From Flavobacteriales bacterium (GTDB lineage Bacteria > Bacteroidota > Bacteroidia > Flavobacteriales > Flavobacteriaceae), in assembly GCA_027066365.1 (NCBI GenBank), contig JAMONV010000004.1, positions 1-64,000 on the forward strand: a stretch of 64,000 nt of DNA, written 5' to 3'. Position 1 is the first letter of the stretch, and each line of letters begins with the position of its first letter. The translations under genes were made by a program, and so were the position numbers. The notes below the pieces were generated by a model. That model saw only the letters and a program-made list of their open reading frames with translations, did no database searches and was not told the origin of the DNA. Shown piece after piece: positions 1-8,695 of this stretch.

Positions 1-1
1 A

Positions 2-50
2 GATTTTCATCCTCCTGCGTGGAAGGCGCCAATCGCGGGAGGGGAAAATC
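2..50. repeat. Inverted repeat / hairpin at window edge
   Basis: GATTTTC at 2-8 is complementary to GAAAATC at 44-50, and CCTCC at 11-15 pairs with GGAGG at 38-42. It lies just upstream of leader copy 1 but has no equivalent before copy 2, so it belongs to the unseen upstream locus or to a longer form of the element. It could be the terminator of a gene to the left, but no T-run follows on the + strand. Confidence 0.4.
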
Positions 51-60
51 GAAGGCTTGG

Positions 61-260
61 CCGAGCCGAAAAGCAAATGCCCGCCGGCAAAATAGAAAGC
101 CGCAGCGAGGCAAAACGACACACCGCCCCTTGGGAGGCGGAAAACAACCGGACACGCCGGGCGCGTGGAAATGCAATAACCGCTCATCGAAGCGGAAATT
201 TACCCAAAGCCGCCCGGAGAGGAGGGGTAGCAAGTATCGGAAAATTTGTTTAATTTTAAA
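61..260 (+). repeat. GC-rich hairpin-dense leader element, copy 1
   Basis: This 200-bp block aligns without gaps to 3911-4110, with about 17 mismatches counted by hand. It is far more GC-rich than its surroundings and carries short stem-loops: TGCC/GGCA at 78-89, CCGCC/GGCGG at 123-140, CACGC/GCGTG at 153-167 and CCGCT/AGCGG at 180-195. The last stem, perfect in copy 2, is degraded here (TTTACCC at 199-205 against GTATCGG at 234-240). It ends in an AT-rich stretch 20 bp before the ATG of a lipoprotein gene. It is most likely a structured 5' leader RNA or a dispersed repeat that carries the promoter. An open frame crosses it but looks non-coding. Confidence 0.75.
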
Positions 261-279
261 AAGTTAAAAAATTAAAGCC

Positions 280-1128
280 ATGAAAGTTTTAAACCTGAAA
301 GCAGTTAGCGTAATATCATTATTCATATTTGTTTTATTAGGAGTAACGCGATGTAATAAGCATCCGGAAGCTGAAATGTCTTCTTTGGAAAAATCAAAGG
401 AATCGAAAGTAGTTCATGTTTTGGAAAAACCAACTCCTTTTCTGGATCGTATTATACTGCCTGTAGGAACTCAGTGGGAAAAAATTAATGATTCGGAAAT
501 AGTTTTTACACTGCCTGACGATTTCCGATTTTTATTGGTGGATTCTAAATCTCAAACTTTTAGGATTGACAGAGTAGGAGGGTATAGATGTGATTGTTCG
601 GCAGGCGGAGGTTGTATTCCTTTTCACAATAGTGAACTTGGTTTTGGATGTCTTCACGGAAATTGCAGTGGCACTTGCGAAGGGAAACCCACAAAAGGAG
701 ATGAAAAGTATTCCATCGAGGGTATAATCTACATCCCGAACAATGAACTCGCTTCCGAAGTGCCATATAAAGCTCAACTTACTGGTCTTGGTAAAGAATG
801 GTTTTTTAATATACCGGAAGTAAAACAAGAAATTGTGAATTCTTATCAATTCTTGTTTAAGCATATACCATTTCCACATAACATGAATGTGGAACAAATT
901 ATACAAAGCCCTGATTATGATTTGGTTAAAGTTTATATGTATGGGGTGGAATTTGCAATGGTGGTTCCTCGAGACAAAAATTTTGAGAAGTATTTGGGCA
1001 GGATTGAAAAACCTACAGGTTGCGATTGTAAAAGCGGAGATAGTGGATGTGAATTCAGGAAGGCGGGAATGTTGGGTTACAAGGTTTATTACTGCACCGA
1101 AGGATGTAGCTCCTGTGAACTTAAGTGA
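280..1128 (+). CDS. Cys-rich secreted lipoprotein with two six-Cys modules
   Basis: The 282-aa product is unrecognised. It has a lipoprotein signal peptide (hydrophobic residues 9-21, lipobox ending GVTRC, Cys25) and should be a surface or periplasmic lipoprotein. The mature part holds two related modules, each starting CDC: cysteines 104, 106, 112, 124, 129, 133 and 248, 250, 257, 272, 276, 279, both ending in a C-E-x-K motif. This indicates an internal duplication and probable disulfides or metal binding. It sits 20 bp behind leader copy 1 and upstream of a beta-propeller and a CxxC lipoprotein. The frame ends at TGA 1126-1128, but recognisable coding continues in the same frame to 1215, where a terminator follows at once. 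The original gene was therefore probably 280-1215. Confidence 0.7.
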   Translation: MKVLNLKAVSVISLFIFVLLGVTRCNKHPEAEMSSLEKSKESKVVHVLEKPTPFLDRIILPVGTQWEKINDSEIVFTLPDDFRFLLVDSKSQTFRIDRVGGYRCDCSAGGGCIPFHNSELGFGCLHGNCSGTCEGKPTKGDEKYSIEGIIYIPNNELASEVPYKAQLTGLGKEWFFNIPEVKQEIVNSYQFLFKHIPFPHNMNVEQIIQSPDYDLVKVYMYGVEFAMVVPRDKNFEKYLGRIEKPTGCDCKSGDSGCEFRKAGMLGYKVYYCTEGCSSCELK

Positions 1129-1215
1129 TTATTGTATAATACCGGAAAATACGTTTTTATCTATAAAAACCAATCCGGAGACGTTGTGCGAGTATATACA
1201 TACTGGAACAGTTGA
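1126..1215 (+). other. In-frame continuation of the Cys-rich gene beyond a TGA
   Basis: After TGA 1126-1128 the same frame stays open for 28 codons to TGA 1213-1215. Its end, VFIYKNQSGDVVRVYT, resembles the C-terminus of the cassette-2 lipoprotein, YLILKDLEGNIVAVYT, in 7 of 16 positions. A hairpin follows the first stop (CCGGA 1142-1146 with TCCGG 1174-1178, and GTTTTTA 1153-1159 with TAAAAAC 1164-1170). The terminator lies 4 nt after the second stop, not the first. A nonsense mutation, a sequencing error or stop readthrough would all fit. Selenocysteine is conceivable but unsupported. Confidence 0.55.
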
Positions 1216-1218
1216 CCG

Positions 1219-1257
1219 AAAAACGTGGGGACTTAAACTCCTCACGTTTTTATTCTT
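1219..1257 (+). terminator. Rho-independent terminator after the Cys-rich gene
   Basis: AAAAACGTGGGGA (1219-1231) pairs with TCCTCACGTTTTT (1239-1251) with one G-T wobble and is followed by a T-rich tail. It separates the Cys-rich gene from the propeller gene, so the small product may be made at a higher level than the downstream genes. Confidence 0.75.
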
Positions 1258-1269
1258 TATAAAACCGAT

Positions 1270-2394
1270 ATGAGACCAATCAAATACCTTCTAATCGTCT
1301 TTCTCACATATCTTATCCAAGCTTGCCGTGAGAAAAAAAATTCTCCTCTGGCATCTTCTTTGGTAATTGAAGACAGCATTCATTTGCCTCTGCGTTTCAA
1401 ACCTTCATACAAATATATCAATGCCGCAAAAATACACGACCGGGAATATATTTGGGTTGCCGAACCCTTAACCGATAAGAAAATTTACTTCTTCGATACC
1501 CAAGGAAAGCCGGTGGACACCATACATTTGGATAGAATTATGAATATACTTGGTGGCTATAACGAAAACTTAACACTAGAGCCGGGCCAAACCATTCTTT
1601 ATACGCCCAAACAAATTATTTTTCTTGATAATGAATCAAAGGATGTACTGAAAATCTTCAATGTGGACAGTTTGTTCGGGAAACAAAACGATGTTTACAT
1701 GTTCAGTCATAAATTATTGAAAAATTTTAATAAACCTTCCACTTCATTTCTCTTGATTAATTTGTGGTGGAGAAAATTCAAACAAAGAAAAGTGCTGGAC
1801 GGAGAATATTATAAAATCCAGCATACGAAACCGATTTTTGTTATTTTAGACAAAAAAACGGGAAAAATTATTAAACGTTATGCCGTGCTCACCTGGTTTA
1901 ATCCTGAACCTTATAATGCTTTTCATACCTTTGATATGAAAGTTTGCAACGACGGTAACATCGCCGTATTTACGCGTTTTTCCGACACCATATATTTTTT
2001 GGATACGATACATTTCAACCTTTCCCGTAAGCTTCCGGTAAAAAGTAACAGGGTTTCAACAAAGGCTCCCATGCTCCCCGTGGATTACGACAAACCGATT
2101 ACCTACCACTTGGGCGTTCACGGAGGTATTATTAATCTGTTTTATTCTCCCTCAAAAAAGCTATATTACGTCATCGTCGCCGATGACTTGGAAGATCTAA
2201 AGCTGAAAAACCGTGAAAAACAAGATTTTGCCATAATGGTTTATGACACTCTATTCAGGAAGAAACAAGAATACATTGTAAATGCATCGGAATATGAAAT
2301 GTTCCATACGTTTGTAACGGACAAGGGGCTTTGGCTTATGAAAAATAACAAAAATTATGACAAAAAAGGTATTTATCTTCATCTGGTTCATTAG
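1270..2394 (+). CDS. Beta-propeller lipoprotein (DUF4221-like), cassette 1
   Basis: The 374-aa protein has a lipoprotein signal peptide (lipobox IQAC, Cys19). The body is made of repeated beta-strand stretches typical of six-bladed propeller lipoproteins of Bacteroidota; DUF4221 is the nearest family I can suggest. It is a clear paralogue of 4567-5688. Shared blocks include NPVDT/KPVDT near residue 80, the APMLP-x2-Y segment near 270 followed by an H-G-x-I motif, and a YY-V core near 305. Its last 38 nt overlap the start of the CxxC lipoprotein gene, suggesting translational coupling. Bacteroides BF3164-type propellers accompany small secreted Cys proteins (NVEALA), so a partner role for the upstream Cys-rich protein is plausible but inferred. 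Confidence 0.7.
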   Translation: MRPIKYLLIVFLTYLIQACREKKNSPLASSLVIEDSIHLPLRFKPSYKYINAAKIHDREYIWVAEPLTDKKIYFFDTQGKPVDTIHLDRIMNILGGYNENLTLEPGQTILYTPKQIIFLDNESKDVLKIFNVDSLFGKQNDVYMFSHKLLKNFNKPSTSFLLINLWWRKFKQRKVLDGEYYKIQHTKPIFVILDKKTGKIIKRYAVLTWFNPEPYNAFHTFDMKVCNDGNIAVFTRFSDTIYFLDTIHFNLSRKLPVKSNRVSTKAPMLPVDYDKPITYHLGVHGGIINLFYSPSKKLYYVIVADDLEDLKLKNREKQDFAIMVYDTLFRKKQEYIVNASEYEMFHTFVTDKGLWLMKNNKNYDKKGIYLHLVH

Positions 2395-2824
2395 TGCCGT
2401 TTTTCTTTTCGATTGCAGAAATAATAACTTGAACGATTCATCCCCTTACCGGCATTATGAACATCTGTTGACCAAAGAACTCTCTCTTTCCGATTCCGTC
2501 AAAGTCATCTATGTTTTGTCGGACACTCAATGCTATGCATGCAATATTAAATTCGCCAAATTGATTGAACAAGCGGGAAATGATGCCTCGGCACTGCTTA
2601 TTATCAATGTTCCGCAAACATTTGTGGACATCGGTCCGTTTAGGCGGTTCGATAATGTGGTATTTAACTTTCATAAAGAAGATACGTTTTTTAACCGATC
2701 CAAAATAATTTACCGGAACAAGTGCCATATTCGGCATATCATTCCGGTTGAAGCCCGAACCATTCGGCACATAGAAAGCGATTTTCCCCGAATATTCTTA
2801 CCAGGAAAACTTTCGGATTTTTAA
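2357..2824 (+). CDS. Thioredoxin-like CxxC lipoprotein, cassette 1
   Basis: The 155-aa protein has a lipoprotein signal peptide (lipobox LFDC, Cys20) and a short alpha/beta domain. A beta strand (VKVIYVL) leads into Cys59-Tyr-Ala-Cys62, the position of a thioredoxin-fold active site. It is shorter than TlpA/ResA (about 170-200 aa) and lacks an obvious cis-Pro segment, so redox activity is inferred. It is paralogous to 5651-6100, sharing FH-x-EDTFF, the SKIIY/TKIIY core and I-x-P-x5-R-T near the C-terminus. It starts 38 nt inside the propeller gene in the other frame, exactly as in cassette 2. A role in disulfide handling of the Cys-rich neighbours is a reasonable guess. Confidence 0.65.
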   Translation: MTKKVFIFIWFISAVFLFDCRNNNLNDSSPYRHYEHLLTKELSLSDSVKVIYVLSDTQCYACNIKFAKLIEQAGNDASALLIINVPQTFVDIGPFRRFDNVVFNFHKEDTFFNRSKIIYRNKCHIRHIIPVEARTIRHIESDFPRIFLPGKLSDF

Positions 2825-2849
2825 AAACAAATAAAACTAATTTTTTCGT

Positions 2850-3164
2850 TTGACTTATTTCGTGGAGCAACGAGGAAATGAAATTTACGCTTACGACTTC
2901 ATCACCGGTGAAAGCTTTCAAGGCAAAATTTCTTCCGCTCAAGCGCGTGCCGGGCAAGGACAAAATATTTCCCCGGATTTGTTATCTTTGATAAATGAAA
3001 ACCCGGATGGCACGGCGGCGAAAATAAGAGCAAAATTTCGGGGATGGAGTTGTAGTGATAATATTTATATGGTTGCACCGGGAGATTGCAGGGCTTATTG
3101 TTGCTATTATGTTATGTATGTAAAGATAGGTTGTGATAATGCACATGGAGTTGATTGCCCGTAA
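2850..3164 (+). CDS. Cys-rich small protein, start uncertain, possibly 5'-truncated
   Basis: The open frame follows the CxxC gene by 25 nt and has no early ATG. It must start at TTG 2850 or a GTG about 12 nt later, or has lost its 5' end. There is a TAA in frame only three codons before 2850, so no signal peptide is encoded. The C-terminal 40 residues carry six cysteines (68, 80, 84, 85, 95, 103) with many Tyr and Gly. This resembles in style the Cys tails of NVEALA-type exported peptides and the six-Cys modules of the first gene. I do not recognise the family. Confidence 0.45.
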   Translation: MTYFVEQRGNEIYAYDFITGESFQGKISSAQARAGQGQNISPDLLSLINENPDGTAAKIRAKFRGWSCSDNIYMVAPGDCRAYCCYYVMYVKIGCDNAHGVDCP

Positions 3165-3177
3165 AAACAATTAACAA

Positions 3178-3882
3178 ATGAAACTTATCGGACTTTTGAT
3201 TGTTTATTATATTGCTTATGAAGCTTTCTCCCAAAATGATTCCGTAAGAACTGTTCCGTTGCAGGAAGTTAAAATTACATTACATGCTAAAAAAAAAGAA
3301 AAAGTTAAATTTCTCCCATCGACACGTTATGTGGGCAGTGAGCTAATTGTTCCCGGGAACGAGATTTTAACTTGTATTTTTCCCACATCCAAAACCAAAG
3401 GAAAACGTTTGACGGAAATTTCCGTGAAAATGAAAAAAGAATTTTTCCCTTCGAAACGGACAAGACAAATTATGCAGGAATTAAAGAAAAAATATGTTGC
3501 TTTGGTTCGGGTGAGAATTTATTTAAAAAATAACGGTAAAATACTTCCGGTATTCGTTTCGGATACGCTTGAATTACATTATCCTAAAGATAGAATTATT
3601 TCTTTGGATGTTTCAAACGAGTCACTTTATTTGGACGAAGACGGGATTTGTATCGGATTGGAATTAATAGGATATCGCAATTTTCCGGATCATAGTATAA
3701 TTAAGAGGTATCCCTTAAGGGTTTCACTGACAGGAAGGAATTCACCTTTTTATCGACAGCAAACCTACATTCGTGAATCCATTAACGGAATGCCTGTACC
3801 GCTACAAAAGCATTTTTCGGATAAAAAAATTCCGAAGAAATATTCGGTGCGAAATTTGTCTGTTGCTTTTACATACCAATAG
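3178..3882 (+). CDS. Secreted protein of unknown function
   Basis: The 234-aa protein has a cleavable-type N-terminal signal (hydrophobic residues 3-18, then SQND). The rest is beta-rich and basic. A motif near residue 155 (L-D-E-D-G-I-C-I-GLELIGY) resembles the C-terminal region of Bacteroidota proteins with a carboxypeptidase-regulatory-like domain, where a similar G-L-E-W/L-I-G strand occurs. No catalytic motif is visible. It starts 13 nt after the Cys-rich ORF and ends 28 nt before leader copy 2, so it is the last gene of the first cassette block. Confidence 0.55.
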   Translation: MKLIGLLIVYYIAYEAFSQNDSVRTVPLQEVKITLHAKKKEKVKFLPSTRYVGSELIVPGNEILTCIFPTSKTKGKRLTEISVKMKKEFFPSKRTRQIMQELKKKYVALVRVRIYLKNNGKILPVFVSDTLELHYPKDRIISLDVSNESLYLDEDGICIGLELIGYRNFPDHSIIKRYPLRVSLTGRNSPFYRQQTYIRESINGMPVPLQKHFSDKKIPKKYSVRNLSVAFTYQ

Positions 3883-3910
3883 GTTCGCATATACCTTGTC
3901 AAAGGCCCGC

Positions 3911-4110
3911 CCGAACCGAAAAGCAAATGCCCGCCGGCAAAATACAGTGCCGCAGCGAGGCAAAACGACACACCGCCCCTTGGAAGGCGGGAATCACCCG
4001 GACACGCCAAGCGCGTGGAAATGCAATAACCGCTCATCGAAGCGGAAACCGACACAAAGCCGCCCGGAGAGGCGGGGTAGCAAGTGTCGGAGAATTTGTT
4101 TAATTTTAAA
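3911..4110 (+). repeat. GC-rich hairpin-dense leader element, copy 2
   Basis: This is the better-preserved copy of the element at 61-260. Stem-loops on the + strand are TGCC/GGCA 3928-3939, TGCC/GGCA 3948-3962, CCGCC/GGCGG 3973-3990, CACGC/GCGTG 4003-4017 and CCGCT/AGCGG 4030-4045. A two-part stem follows, with CCGACAC 4049-4055 pairing perfectly with GTGTCGG 4084-4090 around an inner CCGCC/GGCGG (4060-4075). Most differences from copy 1 fall in loops or linkers. It ends in the same AT-rich tail, 11 bp before the ATG of the next lipoprotein. The string of hairpins suggests a structured RNA or a dispersed repeat family. Confidence 0.75.
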
Positions 4111-4121
4111 AACAGAAAAAC

Positions 4122-4514
4122 ATGAAAAGATTAATTTGGATTATGTTTCTAACGGCTCTCTTGAATTCCTGCGCCAAGCAAGAACCTATGCCGGAAATTA
4201 AATCCGCTCCTAATACGGCGGCAAAAATCGATCCGCCCGAAAGTATGTTCAATGCAAAGTATTATGATCATGGAGGGAATGATATTGGTTGCGACCCAAA
4301 TGAAAGTGTCGATTGCGTTATTTTGGATCCCATTGAGATTACGTTGAAGGAAGACGGCGGTTTGCCTGATTTTGTGGATGATCTTTTTGTAAAAGCCTAT
4401 GAGAAAGGCGAATTGACTGCGGAAATAACCAAAAACACTCAATCGGGTTATGATTATCTTATCCTTAAAGATTTAGAAGGGAATATTGTGGCGGTTTATA
4501 CCAACCAGAAGTAA
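4122..4514 (+). CDS. Small lipoprotein, cassette 2 counterpart of the Cys-rich protein
   Basis: The 130-aa protein has a lipoprotein signal (lipobox LNSC, Cys17) and a short mature part with a GCD...VDC pair (Cys57, Cys65). Its last 20 residues resemble the sequence found beyond the TGA of the 280-1128 gene, which ties it to the same family although it lacks the two six-Cys modules. It starts directly after leader copy 2 and is followed by a terminator-like hairpin, then the propeller gene. Function is unknown; the position suggests it is the variable cargo of the cassette. Confidence 0.65.
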   Translation: MKRLIWIMFLTALLNSCAKQEPMPEIKSAPNTAAKIDPPESMFNAKYYDHGGNDIGCDPNESVDCVILDPIEITLKEDGGLPDFVDDLFVKAYEKGELTAEITKNTQSGYDYLILKDLEGNIVAVYTNQK

Positions 4515-4518
4515 GGTT

Positions 4519-4556
4519 TAAACCACGGGAAAATTCTTTTCATGTGTTTTTTTTAA
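4519..4556 (+). terminator. Probable terminator between small lipoprotein and propeller gene
   Basis: An imperfect hairpin (CAC...GAAAA, loop TTC, TTTTC...GTG, about 4523-4546) runs into a tract of eight T. It sits where cassette 1 has its stronger terminator, 4 nt after the stop codon. Confidence 0.5.
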
Positions 4557-4566
4557 TTTTCTTAAA

Positions 4567-5688
4567 ATGAGTGCGAAATATTTTAGGTTTTTTACAATAA
4601 TTATTTTGATTCTTTTTCTTTTTTCGTGTCACGATACGAAAAAGACAAAAGAAAACGGGAGGCAAGATTTTATACGTATAAAAGACAGTTTGGTATTGGA
4701 TATTCCGTTTTTACCGAGGAGTAAATACATTTACTCTACCGAATGGGACGGAAAAGAGGCGCTTTTGATCATTGAACCTATGACATTAAAAAAGATTTTG
4801 GTTTTCGATATAAATGGGAATCCGGTGGATACGGTGGACATTTCACACATGGTAAATCGTCTTAAAGGTCAATTCGAAAATATGTCTGTGTTTTCGCGCG
4901 ATAGCATTTTATTTTATACCTACGCGCAAATCATAATGTCCGACAGCCATGGCAAGGTTTTCAAGTTATTCAACCTTAAGGATATGTTTAATGATGAATG
5001 GTATTTTTTTTTGAATTATTTTATTGAACATAACCTTCAACGAACATCTTTTTTGATTTCGAACTTGGGATGGTTGGGCAAAAGAAAAGGCAAACGTGGC
5101 GACAGTATTGATTTTAAAAGATTTAAAAAACCCGATTTAGCTATTATTTCCAAGGGAGGACGAATAATCAAAATACTTTCTTATGACGAATGGTTCAGCG
5201 ATCATCCGTTTTATGAAACTAGCACCGCTAATATAAAAATTTGCAGGGACGGACACATTCTATTGTGGATACCTTATACAAATAAATTGGTATTTATGGA
5301 TACGATTAATTTTGAAATGGAAAAGAAATGGAAGATTCAATCCGAAAGTGTAAAAAGCTATGCGCCAATGCTTCCTCCGGGTTACAAAAAGAAAACAACC
5401 TACTATAGAGCTACTCACGGAGCGATCAACGACATTGAATATAATCCCAAGGAAGAAAAATATTATGTTTTGGTTCAAGATTCCGTTCCCGGTCTGGATT
5501 GGAACAGAAGAAACGAAAGAAAATATGCACTTTTAATCTACGATAAGCAAGGAAAAAAACGCGAAGAAAAAATCATTCCTGCAGGGAAATATATTCCTTA
5601 CGCGAATTTTGTCTCCGATAAAGGGTTCTGGATTTTAAGAAAATACGACTATGACAAGAAAAAACTTGTTTTTGATTTGGTGGATTAG
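4567..5688 (+). CDS. Beta-propeller lipoprotein (DUF4221-like), cassette 2
   Basis: The 373-aa protein is paralogous to 1270-2394 and almost the same length. It has a lipoprotein signal (lipobox LFSC, Cys21) followed by a Lys-rich linker and repeated beta-strand blades. The region near residue 273 (APMLP-x2-Y) and the HGAI motif after it match the paralogue, as does the YDKK motif at the C-terminus. The two sequences are otherwise strongly diverged, unlike the nearly identical leaders upstream. The end overlaps the CxxC gene by 38 nt. I see no catalytic residues; propellers of this type usually act in binding or recognition at the cell surface. Confidence 0.7.
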   Translation: MSAKYFRFFTIIILILFLFSCHDTKKTKENGRQDFIRIKDSLVLDIPFLPRSKYIYSTEWDGKEALLIIEPMTLKKILVFDINGNPVDTVDISHMVNRLKGQFENMSVFSRDSILFYTYAQIIMSDSHGKVFKLFNLKDMFNDEWYFFLNYFIEHNLQRTSFLISNLGWLGKRKGKRGDSIDFKRFKKPDLAIISKGGRIIKILSYDEWFSDHPFYETSTANIKICRDGHILLWIPYTNKLVFMDTINFEMEKKWKIQSESVKSYAPMLPPGYKKKTTYYRATHGAINDIEYNPKEEKYYVLVQDSVPGLDWNRRNERKYALLIYDKQGKKREEKIIPAGKYIPYANFVSDKGFWILRKYDYDKKKLVFDLVD

Positions 5689-6100
5689 TTGGATGGTATT
5701 GGTTGCTTGTAATCATTCGGGATCAGAATACCGGAAATACAACCGAATGCTAGGAGAAATTATAGGCGACAAGCCGGTTAAGGAAGTTTATGTTTTGACG
5801 GCAAATCATTGTTATGGATGTAATGTGATGTTTGCCCGTTGGTTGGAAGATAAAGTTCGGGACTCCGCATCGTTGATAATTATCAACGCCGAATTGAGTC
5901 ATTTGGATTTAAGTGCTTTTCTTCATCAACCCGGAGTTTATTTTAGGTTTCACCCGGAAGATACTTTTTTTCAGTCCACCAAGATTATATATTGGAAAGA
6001 CAATCATATGGAACATATTACCCCTATCAATGTCAGGACGGTTCGTTTACTGAACAAACCCGATTGGATGCGACAAAGCGGATATGAATTAGAATTTTAA
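5651..6100 (+). CDS. Thioredoxin-like CxxC lipoprotein, cassette 2
   Basis: The 149-aa paralogue of 2357-2824 has a Trp-rich signal peptide and lipobox LVAC (Cys20). The putative active site is Cys54-Tyr-Gly-Cys57, after the strand VKEVYVL. The block FHPEDTFF and the following TKIIY strand are shared with copy 1. It begins inside the propeller gene with an overlap of 38 nt, the same as in cassette 1. The CxxC at the end of a strand and start of a helix supports a thioredoxin-like fold, but the domain is small and a conserved cis-Pro is not evident. Confidence 0.65.
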   Translation: MTRKNLFLIWWISWMVLVACNHSGSEYRKYNRMLGEIIGDKPVKEVYVLTANHCYGCNVMFARWLEDKVRDSASLIIINAELSHLDLSAFLHQPGVYFRFHPEDTFFQSTKIIYWKDNHMEHITPINVRTVRLLNKPDWMRQSGYELEF

Positions 6101-6475
6101 AATTTAATGATTTTTTCTTCGAAATATACAGAGCAAGGGCTAGTGTTAACCTAAAATCCTTCAAAAATTTCATCCACCGGAAAATGCCCGGTTCACGCCT
6201 GCCCGAGCGGGGTGTGAATATGAGGAAAAATACCGGTAAATTATGTTTTTTCTGCATATTGTTTAAGCACCTGATTCAAAAAAAAAAATTTATCAACTTA
6301 ACATCATATTGCAAAATTCTTTAGCGATAATAAAATAAAAGCAGGTTTTTTAGTATCTATATTGAAAAATGTGCAATTGTCGTTTTCTAATCTTAATAAA
6401 AAAATAAAAAATTATGACAAATCTCATGTTTCAAAAAAGGTTGTATATTTGTTATCGAAATCCAATAACCGGTAT
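6101..6475 (+). promoter_or_regulatory. Intergenic region with hairpin and crp-type gene promoter
   Basis: No gene is supported here. TTCACGCC (6192-6199) pairs with GGTGTGAA (6211-6218), a GC-rich hairpin in AT-rich DNA that may end the cassette-2 transcript, though no T-run follows. TATATTTG at 6444-6451 is a perfect Bacteroidota -7 box (TAnnTTTG), 24 nt before ATG 6476. This supports that ATG over the upstream TTG at 6362. Confidence 0.5.
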
Positions 6476-7162
6476 ATGAAAAACTGTAATTTATGTTTAA
6501 TACGGCATTTGAATGCCATGAAAGAACTCTCCAAAGAAGAACTCGACCGGATTTCCGCGTATAAAAAAGTGCAACACTATCAAAAAGGCGACCAATTGCT
6601 GCGTGAAGGGCAAAATACGAACGGCATTTTTTGTATCATGTCCGGTAAAGGAAAATTGACACGTTATAATTCGTTAGGCAAAGAACAAATCGTTCGTTTC
6701 GTGAAATCGGGCAATTTGATTGGATATCGCTCTGCCATTAGCAACGAACCGGCAAGTTTAAACCTAACGGCTTTGGAAGAAATGACGGCATGTTTCATTC
6801 CCAAGGAAGCCTTCGACGAAGCTTTGGACAACCGAAAATTCGCACGCAGAATCATGGAAATGTTGAGCGAGGACTTGAAACAAGCCAATATGTTTATCGC
6901 CAATTTATCGCAACACACCGTGAAAGAACGTTTGGCGGATACCCTTTTGCATCTGGAAGATGTTTTTGGCACCGACAAAGAAGGAAATATCAATATAGCT
7001 CTTTCGCGCGAAGAATTGTCGAGCATCATCGGAACCGCCTCCGAATCGGTTATTCGCGTGTTATCGGCCTTTAAAAAGGAAGGCATTATATACACCAAAG
7101 CCAAAAAAATCAAGTTATTGGATAAAATTCGCCTGAAACAAATAGCGGAAGGTATCGAATAA
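6476..7162 (+). CDS. Crp/Fnr-family transcriptional regulator
   Basis: The 228-aa protein has an N-terminal cyclic-nucleotide-binding-like beta-roll (about residues 20-140, starting near the motif [10 protein letters not shown]) and a C-terminal winged helix-turn-helix. The recognition region contains [19 protein letters not shown]. Cys4 and Cys7 near the N-terminus recall the Cys pair of Bacteroidota Crp/Fnr proteins, but the four-Cys set of true FNR is not present. The ligand is unknown. ATG 6476 was chosen because a promoter lies just upstream and family alignment starts there. panB follows after 7 bp and is probably co-transcribed. Confidence 0.85.
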
Positions 7163-7169
7163 AACTCCC

Positions 7170-7982
7170 ATGGAAAAAAAACATTATAAAAAAATCACCA
7201 CCAAAGCCTTGTTTGACATGAAACAACAAGGCGAAAAAATCAGTATGCTAACGGCTTACGATTACACCATGGCGCGTATTTTGGACGCCGCCGGAATCGA
7301 CGTCATTTTGGTAGGTGATTCCGCTTCCAACGTTATGGCCGGGCACGAAACCACCCTGCCGATTACGCTGGATCAAATGATCTACCACGCAAGCTCGGTG
7401 GTAAGAGCCGTGGAGCGTGCTTTGGTGGTGGTTGATATGCCGTTCGGAACCTATCAGGGAAATTCCAAAAAAGCGCTGGAATCCGCCATTCGCATCATGA
7501 AAGAATCAGGCGGACACGCCGTAAAAATGGAAGGCGGTGCAGAAATTGCCGAGTCGGTGGAAAGAATTCTTTCGGCCGGCATCCCCGTTATGGGACATTT
7601 AGGCCTTACTCCGCAAAGCATCTATAAATTCGGAACCTATACCGTAAGAGCCAAAGAAGAAAAAGAAGCCAAAAAATTATTGGAAGACGCCAAACTCTTG
7701 GAAGAACTGGGCGTTTTCAGTATCGTGCTGGAAAAAATCCCGGCTCAACTGGCCAAGCAAGTTACCGAATCGGTACGGATTCCCGTTATCGGCATCGGTG
7801 CCGGACCAAATGTGGACGGTCAAGTGCTTGTTATGCATGATATGCTCGGAATGACCAAAGATTTCAGCCCGCGATTCTTGAGGCGCTATGCCGATTTGCA
7901 TTCCATCATGACCCAAGCCTTCAAACAATATATCCGCGATGTTAAAACATTGGATTTCCCCAACGAATCGGAACAATATTAA
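7170..7982 (+). CDS. panB: 3-methyl-2-oxobutanoate hydroxymethyltransferase PanB
   Basis: The 270-aa protein has the length and sequence of PanB, which transfers a hydroxymethyl group from 5,10-methylene-THF to 2-oxoisovalerate to give ketopantoate in pantothenate and CoA synthesis. Family motifs are the metal-binding GDSASNV near residue 48, DMPFGTYQ near 90, VKMEGG near 118, GHLGLTPQS near 142 and IGIGAGP near 208. It lies 7 bp after the Crp/Fnr gene and 14 bp before the pseudouridine synthase gene. No other pantothenate genes are present in the window. Confidence 0.95.
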
Positions 7983-7996
7983 GCGTATAAATTTAC

Positions 7997-8695
7997 ATGC
8001 CCGAACCGGACGTCTTGTATGAAGACAATCATTTGATTATCATTAATAAACGTCCCGGCGATATTGTGCAAGGCGACCGCACGGGGGATATGCCTTTATC
8101 GGAAACGGTCAAAGCTTATTTAAAACACAAATACAACAAACCCGGCAATGTTTTCCTTGGCGTTGTTCACCGCTTGGACCGCCCCGTTTCCGGTGCCGTG
8201 ATTTTCGCCAAAACCTCCAAAGCGCTACGTCGCTTGAATGAAATGTTACGGCGCCACGAAATCAAAAAAACATACTTGGCACTGGTGGAAGGACGTCCCG
8301 AATCCCATGAAGGAACCTACATCGATTACTTGAAAAAAAATCCGAAAACCAACAAAACGACGGTTTTCAAACGTCCCACCGAAGGCGCCAAGAAAGCAAT
8401 TCTTCATTACGTCATGCGCAAAATCGGCGATCATTATTCCTTGTTGGAAATCGATTTGAAAACAGGACGTCATCATCAAATACGCGCTCAATTGGCCAAG
8501 CACGGAACGCCCGTCAAAGGCGACTTGAAATACGGCGCGAGACGAAGTAACCCGTCCGGCGGAATCATGCTTCACGCCGCCCGGTTGGGATTTATTCATC
8601 CCGTCAAGAAAACGCCGGTTCAAATCATCGCTTCCTTTCCCGAAGAATACGGTTGGGAAATCATAGAAAAATTAAAAAATTGCCCCGGCAAATAA
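7997..8695 (+). CDS. RluA-family pseudouridine synthase
   Basis: The 232-aa RNA pseudouridine synthase has no N-terminal S4 domain. The catalytic loop is HRLDRPVSG (Asp near residue 57), followed by the conserved KTSKALRRLN segment and, near residue 155, KTGRHHQIRAQLA, which is typical of the RluA/YqcB type. The likely substrate is rRNA or tRNA, but the exact site cannot be assigned. It is the last gene of the crp-panB unit and meets the convergent asmA-like gene 8 bp downstream. Confidence 0.9.
   Translation: MPEPDVLYEDNHLIIINKRPGDIVQGDRTGDMPLSETVKAYLKHKYNKPGNVFLGVVHRLDRPVSGAVIFAKTSKALRRLNEMLRRHEIKKTYLALVEGRPESHEGTYIDYLKKNPKTNKTTVFKRPTEGAKKAILHYVMRKIGDHYSLLEIDLKTGRHHQIRAQLAKHGTPVKGDLKYGARRSNPSGGIMLHAARLGFIHPVKKTPVQIIASFPEEYGWEIIEKLKNCPGK

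What the first reader, a model, noticed from the sequence alone, without database searches (positions are those of the whole stretch)
61..6100. Duplicated four-part cassette: structured leader, small Cys-bearing lipoprotein, propeller lipoprotein, CxxC lipoprotein
Seen: two copies in the same order (61-2824 and 3911-6100), each with a hairpin-dense leader, a short lipoprotein, a terminator-like hairpin, a propeller lipoprotein and a thioredoxin-like CxxC lipoprotein. The small lipoproteins share only a C-terminal stretch, as expected for a variable cargo, while the propeller and CxxC proteins are clear paralogues. Known: in Bacteroides, small Cys-rich NVEALA proteins lie next to BF3164-type propeller lipoproteins. 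Inference: this may be an analogous surface cargo-plus-partner system with its own redox lipoprotein. Its function (signalling, toxin/immunity, attachment) is open.
Basis: partly seen in the sequence, partly recalled or inferred. Interest (0 to 1): 0.8.

Follow-up and report, generated by a model that had tools for sequence, protein, structure and literature searches.

The report
Leader-driven exported-peptide and partner cassettes
A bacterium related to Flavobacterium places one and the same structured RNA leader in front of many unrelated small exported proteins, each followed by its own envelope partner genes, and the window shows two such cassettes plus a decayed third, a modular and nearly unstudied way to make swappable secreted peptides.

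Summary
The duplicated cassette is real, with corrections. The propellers (35% identical) and CxxC lipoproteins (39%) are paralogues with identical 38-nt overlaps. The first 'small' lipoprotein is 282 aa; the stretch it was said to share with the second lies beyond its stop codon, a likely remnant. A third, 5'-truncated cassette at 2850-3882 was missed. The leader is the main discovery: 6 copies in this genome, 17 counted in the genus, 15 of 17 ending 8-24 nt before the ATG of an exported-looking protein. Partners differ: DUF4221-type propeller with or without CxxC, GLPGLI plus CarboxypepD_reg, putative small barrel, 2-TM mini-protein. Two hairpins fold alike in a diverged species. Cargo and partner are often separated by a terminator-like hairpin (12 of 17 against 1 of 20 control gaps). 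The propeller is a divergent DUF4221 (PDB 3s9j, Z 21.1). Cargo 2 carries a Cys-pair/P[IV] motif that, in the loci examined, otherwise occurs only in small exported peptides encoded upstream of DUF4221-type propellers. I infer exchangeable exported peptides made in excess of a cognate surface partner. An antagonistic role is possible but unproven.

The parts
2..262 (+). structured 5' leader, copy 1 (hairpins 1 and 2 at 2-67; 3' part 146-262); the contig begins at base 1, so its promoter is not in the window
   Evidence: 6 copies in the genome; models R1 and R2; alignments
280..1128 (+). cargo 1: 282-aa lipoprotein with two similar Cys-rich segments (halves chosen by hand; score 43, reached by 45 of 5000 shuffles)
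   Evidence: no Pfam or NCBIfam family; lipobox read by eye
1129..1215 (+). in-frame sequence after the stop of cargo 1 that resembles the C-terminus of cargo 2 (likely remnant)
   Evidence: score 37; 8 of 5000 shuffles
1219..1251 (+). terminator-like hairpin between cargo 1 and propeller 1
   Evidence: -15.5 kcal/mol, T run
1270..2394 (+). propeller lipoprotein 1 (374 aa), divergent DUF4221
2357..2824 (+). CxxC (CYAC) lipoprotein 1, 155 aa, overlaps the propeller gene by 38 nt
2850..3164 (+). 5'-truncated third cargo gene (no leader or signal peptide), Cys-rich C-terminus
   Evidence: 56% identity over 55 aa (E 2e-19) to the leader-borne 201-aa cargo of G004
3178..3882 (+). 234-aa gene after the third cargo
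   Evidence: 33% identity, E 2e-35, to the gene after that cargo in G004; no Pfam family above cut-off
3899..4112 (+). leader copy 2, following the 234-aa gene directly: lacks promoter-like region and hairpin 1
4122..4514 (+). cargo 2: 130-aa lipoprotein with Cys-pair/PIEI motif
   Evidence: no Pfam family
4524..4554 (+). weak hairpin plus T8 between cargo 2 and propeller 2
   Evidence: -3.7 kcal/mol
4567..5688 (+). propeller lipoprotein 2 (373 aa), divergent DUF4221
5651..6100 (+). CxxC (CYGC) lipoprotein 2, 149 aa, overlaps the propeller gene by 38 nt

Best explanation
The window holds two intact cassettes and one decayed member of a modular family seen so far only in this genus. Read from sequence: a shared regulatory module (promoter-like TTGACT, a T run, TATAGATTT; then a ~260-nt hairpin-rich leader) precedes a gene for an exported-looking protein, often with paired cysteines. 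A terminator-like hairpin usually follows. The next genes encode an envelope partner that differs by cassette: DUF4221-type propeller plus CxxC lipoprotein here; GLPGLI plus CarboxypepD_reg protein, or a putative small barrel, elsewhere. Inferred: the cargo is made in excess of its partner through partial read-through of the hairpin. The leader acts in the RNA (stability or translation) and also gives homology through which cargo modules are exchanged. The CxxC lipoprotein sets or repairs cargo disulfides. The propeller binds its own cargo at the outer membrane for release, display or self-protection. The likeliest use is competition with related cells by exchangeable exported peptides; this last step is the weakest.
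For: Leader: 6 copies here at 85-95% identity, 17 counted in the genus (the one in G005 weak, E 0.084); 15 of 17 end 8-24 nt before the ATG of an exported-looking protein and one more before a non-ATG start. All 3 GLPGLI genes found in this genome at E <= 0.01 and both propeller-CxxC pairs lie in leader cassettes. Structure: hairpins 1 and 2 fold to the same plan in G004 leaders that are 51-67% identical to the others. Terminator: hairpin plus T run in 12 of 17 cargo-partner gaps against 1 of 20 control gaps, Fisher p 3.5e-5 (two controls hold terminators my T-window missed, so 3 of 20 is fairer). Propeller: DUF4221 by profile (98.3%, E 1.8e-14) and fold (3s9j Z 21.1 over 293 residues, next 14.0). 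Motif C-x5-8-C-x1-7-P[ITVL][IVE][IVE]: 5 of 1982 ORFs in 31 sources, each in an exported-looking protein whose next gene is a propeller lipoprotein. Exchange: W2 and contig C41 share the tail of the 234-aa gene and the leader, then nothing from the cargo on; remnants at 1129-1215 and 2850-3164. Competition: two leader cargos (C45a here, C4 of G004) end in a hydrophobic Gly/Ala-rich stretch and are followed within about 30 nt by a 53-57-aa two-TM-like ORF.
Against: No expression, localisation or activity data. The CxxC fold is not confirmed (model pLDDT 50.5; no fold match at E <= 0.001; best profile hit a Dsb protein at E 0.16). Four of 17 leader cargos have no Cys past residue 25. Five of 17 gaps fail the terminator criterion. 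Hairpin strength alone gave 13 of 17 against 9 of 20, p 0.053. The two bacteriocin-like cargos are not demonstrably homologous (249 of 3000 shuffles), nor are their 2-TM ORFs (1214 of 3000); the pattern is in 2 of 17 cassettes, not the window's. Small upstream genes are not general for GLPGLI: 8 of 30 best-scoring family clusters, all with 2-20 nt gaps that leave no room for a terminator. Pair counts for the leader barely beat shuffles (covariation 28 of 500; pairs changed on both sides 145 of 500). The motif was defined on the sequences it is counted in and was loosened once. Contigs break at the repeat, so copy 1's promoter is unseen and the W2/C41 junction needs a closed genome, although the copies differ by base changes.
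Confidence: 0.45

Rival explanations
1. Surface signalling or attachment: the cargo is a ligand or adhesin shown on the surface by its propeller or receptor partner, with no antagonism.
For: Partners belong to families usually placed in the envelope: propeller lipoproteins, CarboxypepD_reg protein, a putative barrel below Pfam cut-off. Some cargos are conserved between species rather than polymorphic, e.g. G001 C316 and G004 C13b (score 593).
Against: The 2-TM ORFs after two cargos look like immunity proteins; most cargos of one genome show no resemblance to each other (read by eye).
Confidence: 0.25
2. An envelope housekeeping or redox-stress regulon: one leader co-regulates surface lipoproteins, and the CxxC protein serves general disulfide repair.
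For: One common leader on all these cassettes suggests a common signal; a CxxC lipoprotein accompanies the propeller.
Against: CxxC relatives occur only in the two window cassettes of this genome, so 4 of 6 leader cassettes here lack one.
Confidence: 0.15
3. The leader is a REP/MITE-like dispersed repeat that happens to lie before genes and has no role of its own.
For: GC 59-62% against 42% for the window; near-identical copies; other dispersed repeats lie just upstream at C3 and C45.
Against: 15 of 17 copies at 8-24 nt before an ATG in the same orientation; the two models gave no further copies at E <= 0.1 in 9 genus genomes; fold plan kept at 51-67% identity.
Confidence: 0.07
4. The cargos are precursors of modified peptides (RiPP-lipoprotein hybrids as reported for Dyadobacter).
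For: Some are lipoproteins with C-terminal Cys motifs; that class exists in Bacteroidota (PMC12636315, passages seen).
Against: No modifying enzyme among the cassette genes scanned (wider neighbours were not scanned); the CPxCGxG motif was not seen by eye.
Confidence: 0.05

Closest known systems
DUF4221 propeller lipoproteins (PF13970; PDB 3s9j, BVU_1028)
   Same: Fold and full-length alignment; small exported-looking Cys peptide encoded upstream in G293 (two), G149 and G001
   Different: Window propellers are not detected by the Pfam model; they carry an overlapping CxxC lipoprotein gene and a leader; their cargos are 130 and 282 aa
NVEALA peptides with BF3164-type propellers of Bacteroides (from the finding and recall)
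   Same: Layout: small exported Cys peptide next to a propeller lipoprotein
   Different: No Pfam match to NVEALA for the Cys-pair peptides; no paper in the library holds the word NVEALA
GLPGLI / Porph_ging (PF09697) plus CarboxypepD_reg gene pairs
   Same: Three of the six leader cassettes of this genome use this partner pair
   Different: In 30 best-scoring family clusters, 22 have no small exported-like gene upstream; 8 do, 113-135 aa and 2-20 nt away, without leader or terminator gap
RiPP-lipoprotein hybrids (Dyadobacter DybA; PMC12636315, passages only)
   Same: Small Cys-bearing lipoproteins in Bacteroidota
   Different: No modifying enzyme recognised among the genes scanned; different motifs
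Bacteroides BamI, a six-bladed propeller lipoprotein of the BAM complex (PMC12578637, passages only)
   Same: Propeller lipoprotein at the cell surface
   Different: BamI has an extra N-terminal domain and is part of the BAM complex; the passages seen mention no cargo gene

Membership tests
DUF4221 (PF13970) | Match to the Pfam model over its cut-off | tested here: not met
   No PF13970 match for either window propeller or elsewhere in this genome
DUF4221 (PF13970) | Full-length profile similarity and same propeller fold as the solved member | tested here: met
   hhalign 98.3%, E 1.8e-14, 345 columns, against five relatives of which four pass the Pfam model; 3s9j top, Foldseek E 2.8e-13, Z 21.1, rmsd 4.0 over 293 residues; model pLDDT 61.6
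NVEALA peptides | Match to the Pfam model | tested here: inconclusive
   No NVEALA match at E <= 10 for cargo 2 and four Cys-pair peptides; HMMER filters drop weak matches and short peptides are hard to score
Thioredoxin/Dsb-like oxidoreductases | CxxC at the start of a helix after a strand, in a thioredoxin fold | tested here: inconclusive
   CxxC kept in both copies and in G317; predicted strand 45-49, CxxC 54-57, helix 55-68, but pLDDT 50.5, no fold match, Dsb hit E 0.16
Known structured RNAs (Rfam 15) | Match above gathering score | tested here: not met
   One match up to E 5 in window 1-7000 (E 4.8, far below its gathering score, outside the leader)
Bacteriocin with immunity gene | Adjacent small membrane protein giving self-protection | tested here: inconclusive
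   53-57-aa two-TM-like ORFs follow 2 of 17 leader cargos, not the window's; protection untested
RiPP-lipoprotein hybrids | Modifying enzyme (MNIO) in the cluster | tested here: inconclusive
   None among the eight window ORFs or the cassette genes scanned elsewhere; wider neighbours not scanned
Phase-variable genes | Repeat-length change in a population switches expression | not testable with these tools
   T run of 6-16 in 9 of 10 promoter stretches read, interrupted (longest 5) in one; no reads available

The most novel reading that the evidence does not exclude
A phase-variable arsenal: one promoter-leader module, with a slippery poly-T in its promoter, governs many exchangeable exported peptides, each with its own matched partner, so a cell can switch or swap its secreted weapon or surface ligand by leader recombination.
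Probability: 0.25. Interest if true: 0.85.

Novelty: new variant of a known kind. Interest (0 to 1): 0.62.

Why it matters
It gives sequence handles (the leader, the terminator and a Cys-pair/P[IV] motif) for finding exported-peptide systems in Flavobacteriaceae, and makes a concrete testable claim about what DUF4221 propellers do: bind a cognate small exported peptide. The library searches found no paper holding the words DUF4221 or NVEALA and three holding GLPGLI, so these families are close to unstudied in that open library.

Tried and rejected
Rfam for the leader: nothing. Pfam and NCBIfam for eight window ORFs: nothing above cut-off. Leader in 60 relatives by BLAST: 4 of 60 positive, all same genus. 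Not counted among the 17 copies: a 26-base match in G006 (E 9.5e-4) and a leader remnant in G004 (C13:1806-1833). Model R1 in 199 family genomes: this genome only (stricter filters). CxxC profile in 299 family genomes: 3 positive; I reject the G104 hit (E 7.9e-4), which lies among unrelated genes. CxxC fold search: no match at E <= 0.001. Homology of the second genes of G001 C87 and G173 to the CxxC proteins is weak: W2-G001 201, W2-G173 38, G317-G001 73, G317-G173 1558 of 2000 shuffles.

A GLPGLI-cargo rule for the whole family was rejected. A first look used loci with little upstream DNA (13 of 30 under about 200 nt) and is superseded; with 0.8-4 kb upstream, 8 of 30 clusters have a small exported-like gene at 2-20 nt. 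In the genus, 9 of 14 GLPGLI genes have a small exported-looking gene next upstream; the others are G002 C1, G004 C5, G004 C13 (none seen), G007 C97 (contig starts inside the gene) and a fragment at G002 C158:495.

A first terminator scan used even window lengths only and missed hairpins (9 of 17 against 2 of 9 controls at -10 kcal/mol, Mann-Whitney p 0.083); I redid it with all lengths and more controls. The 17 gaps are 13 leader cassettes and 4 leaderless ones; four leader copies with no clear partner gene (C45a, G001 C354, G001 C239, G004 C4) were left out. The motif was first tried with a shorter spacer (4 hits) and loosened to include the G001 peptide (5 hits). Leader homogenisation within genomes: G004 copies are 93.5% alike and 51-67% to the others, but between this genome and G001 the picture is mixed, so it is not claimed as shown. 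Paper searches on phase variation and bacteriocins gave nothing relevant; two searches on small peptides and propellers gave the two papers cited in passages.


Full report
Observation. The two cassettes are present as described in order and kind. The leader repeat is 222 nt at 49-270 and 3899-4120, 89% identical. The propellers are 35% identical and the CxxC proteins 39%, and each pair overlaps by exactly 38 nt. Three points were wrong or missing. The first cargo is a 282-aa protein ending at 1128. The 'shared C-terminal stretch' is not part of it: codons 1129-1215, in frame after its TGA, resemble the end of cargo 2 (score 37, 8 of 5000 shuffles), while the 282-aa protein itself does not (1728 of 2000). 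Between the cassettes, ORF 2850-3164 and gene 3178-3882 are a third cassette without a 5' end. In G004 (same genus) the intact version reads leader, 201-aa Cys-rich lipoprotein, 242-aa gene; identities to the window are 56% over 55 aa (E 2e-19) and 33% (E 2e-35).

The organism. G317, in the same family, has the contig length of Patiriisocius marinus, a member of Flavobacteriaceae, so the window is from Flavobacteriaceae by that inference.

The leader. In this genome it occurs six times, at C4 (twice, in the window), C41, C3 and C45 (twice), at 85-95% identity. In the nine held genomes of the genus I count 17: this genome 6, G001 5, G004 4 and G002 1, G005 1 (weak, E 0.084). It was not found outside the genus in 60 relatives by BLAST or in 199 family genomes by model R1. 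Fifteen of the 17 copies end 8-24 nt before the ATG of a protein with a signal-like N-terminus, judged by eye; no signal predictor was run. Leader ends are those of the BLAST or model match, except G004 C13b, where I guessed it. Of the other two, G004 C4 is followed by a lipoprotein with a non-ATG start and G004 C13b by a relative of the G001 C316 cargo that seems to have lost its 5' end. Thirteen of 17 cargos have at least two Cys past residue 25; four have none.

Promoter and structure. Nine copies show CTTGACT or CTTGATT, a T run and TATAGATTT or a near variant upstream; a tenth (G004 C4, at a contig end) shows the T run and what follows. T runs are 6-16 long in 9 of 10 and interrupted (longest 5) in one. 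Copies W2 and C41 lack this stretch and hairpin 1 and follow the tail of a 234-aa gene directly, so in the window the second leader is probably inside an operon and works in RNA. Hairpins 1 and 2 fold to the same plan in G004 leaders, which are only 51-67% identical to the others. Formal pair counts on alignment A7 give 90.8% pairing against 42-61% for slid controls, but the covariation measures hardly exceed shuffles.

Partners. The genes after the cargo differ: propeller plus CxxC (this genome, twice); DUF4221 propeller (G001 C280, E 4.3e-14); GLPGLI plus CarboxypepD_reg-type gene (C3, C41, C45b; G001 C253, whose GLPGLI score is below the cut-off; G002 C158; G005 C25). After the G001 C316 cargo comes a putative small barrel protein (PF13505, below cut-off), with a look-alike after the G004 C13b cargo (by eye); the 444-aa gene after the G004 C1 cargo has no Pfam match. 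All three GLPGLI genes found in this genome lie in leader cassettes. Leaderless relatives occur too: three GLPGLI genes of G005 and G006 are preceded by 91-133-aa exported-looking Cys proteins without a detected leader. In all, 9 of 14 GLPGLI genes of the genus have such a gene next upstream. In the wider family 8 of 30 best-scoring clusters have a small exported-like gene, always 2-20 nt away, so without the terminator gap.

The hairpin between cargo and partner. A hairpin of -9 kcal/mol or better with a T run lies in 12 of 17 cargo-partner gaps against 1 of 20 control gaps (Fisher p 3.5e-5; 3 of 20 if two control terminators that my T-window missed are counted). Hairpin strength alone separates them less (13 of 17 against 9 of 20, p 0.053).

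Propeller and its peptide. The window propellers fail the Pfam DUF4221 model but align end to end with five relatives, four of which pass it (98.3%, E 1.8e-14). The predicted structure (pLDDT 61.6) matches the solved DUF4221 protein 3s9j best by far (Z 21.1 over 293 residues; next 14.0). Upstream of the relatives found, G149 and G293 encode 64- and 61-aa exported-looking peptides and G317 a short broken lipoprotein start; G173 and G306 do not. Cargo 2, the G001 peptide, two G293 peptides and the G149 peptide share a motif, C-x5-8-C-x1-7-P[ITVL][IVE][IVE], found in 5 of 1982 six-frame ORFs of at least 40 aa in 31 sources; in all five the next gene is a propeller lipoprotein. The motif was defined on these sequences and loosened once, so it is a lead, not an independent test.

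The CxxC protein. It is conserved next to the propeller in Patiriisocius marinus (G317; 35-nt overlap; E 1.6e-19 and 3.1e-17). G001 C87 has a DUF4221 C-terminus followed, with 4 nt overlap, by a 150-aa lipoprotein with a CxxC, whose homology is not proven. A thioredoxin-like role is plausible from the CxxC position but the fold is not confirmed.

Exchange. Contig C41 and window copy 2 share the tail of the 234-aa gene and the leader and then show no further match from the cargo onward. They differ by base changes, so they are separate copies rather than one sequence assembled twice, but a closed genome is needed. Together with the two remnants in the window (1129-1215, 2850-3164) and a leader remnant with a broken peptide start in G004 (L033 1800-1833), this points to replacement of cargo modules at the leader.

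Function. Two leader cargos, in this genome (C45a) and in G004 (C4), end in a hydrophobic Gly/Ala-rich stretch and are followed within about 30 nt by 53-57-aa two-TM-like ORFs, the plan of a bacteriocin with its immunity protein. This is the only direct hint of antagonism, in 2 of 17 cassettes and not in the window's own. I therefore commit to exported, exchangeable peptides made in excess of a cognate surface partner, with competition as the likeliest but unproven use.

Literature. No paper in the library holds the words NVEALA or DUF4221; three hold GLPGLI, one of which I saw in passages, where GLPGLI genes appear among PhoP-regulated genes of Riemerella anatipestifer (PMC9603813).

Noticed in passing
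L025:4694-4867 (-) and L034:7233-7394 (-): 53-57-aa two-TM-like ORFs directly after lipoprotein cargos with hydrophobic Gly/Ala-rich C-termini, like bacteriocin-immunity pairs; not demonstrably homologous to each other.
   Followed up: partly
upstream of leaders at L026 about 8200-8500 (-) and L025 about 4360-4660 and 5810-6110 (-): A further ~240-nt block conserved upstream of the promoter-like stretch (81-93% identical), preceded by dispersed ATTCGTGTAATTCGTGG-type repeats.
   Followed up: partly
L048:5142-5321, 5359-5529 and 3262-3435 (-): G293 encodes further 56-59-aa exported-looking Cys peptides near propeller lipoproteins, with different Cys patterns.
   Followed up: no
L045 about 7290-7452 (+): The small lipoprotein start before the Patiriisocius propeller-CxxC pair runs into a GAT repeat and is out of frame, possibly a decayed or slippage-switched cargo.
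   Followed up: no
L136, L142, L143, L150, L151, L153, L156, L157 (first GLPGLI gene of each): In 8 of 30 family GLPGLI clusters a 113-135-aa exported-like gene lies 2-20 nt upstream; several look related to each other (by eye), unlike the variable cargos of this genus.
   Followed up: no
L026:2971-3921 (-): A transposase-like ORF (read by eye) lies just downstream of the C3 leader cassette.
   Followed up: no
window 6362-7162 (+): A Crp/FNR-like regulator (read by eye) follows cassette 2; no link to the leader tested.
   Followed up: no
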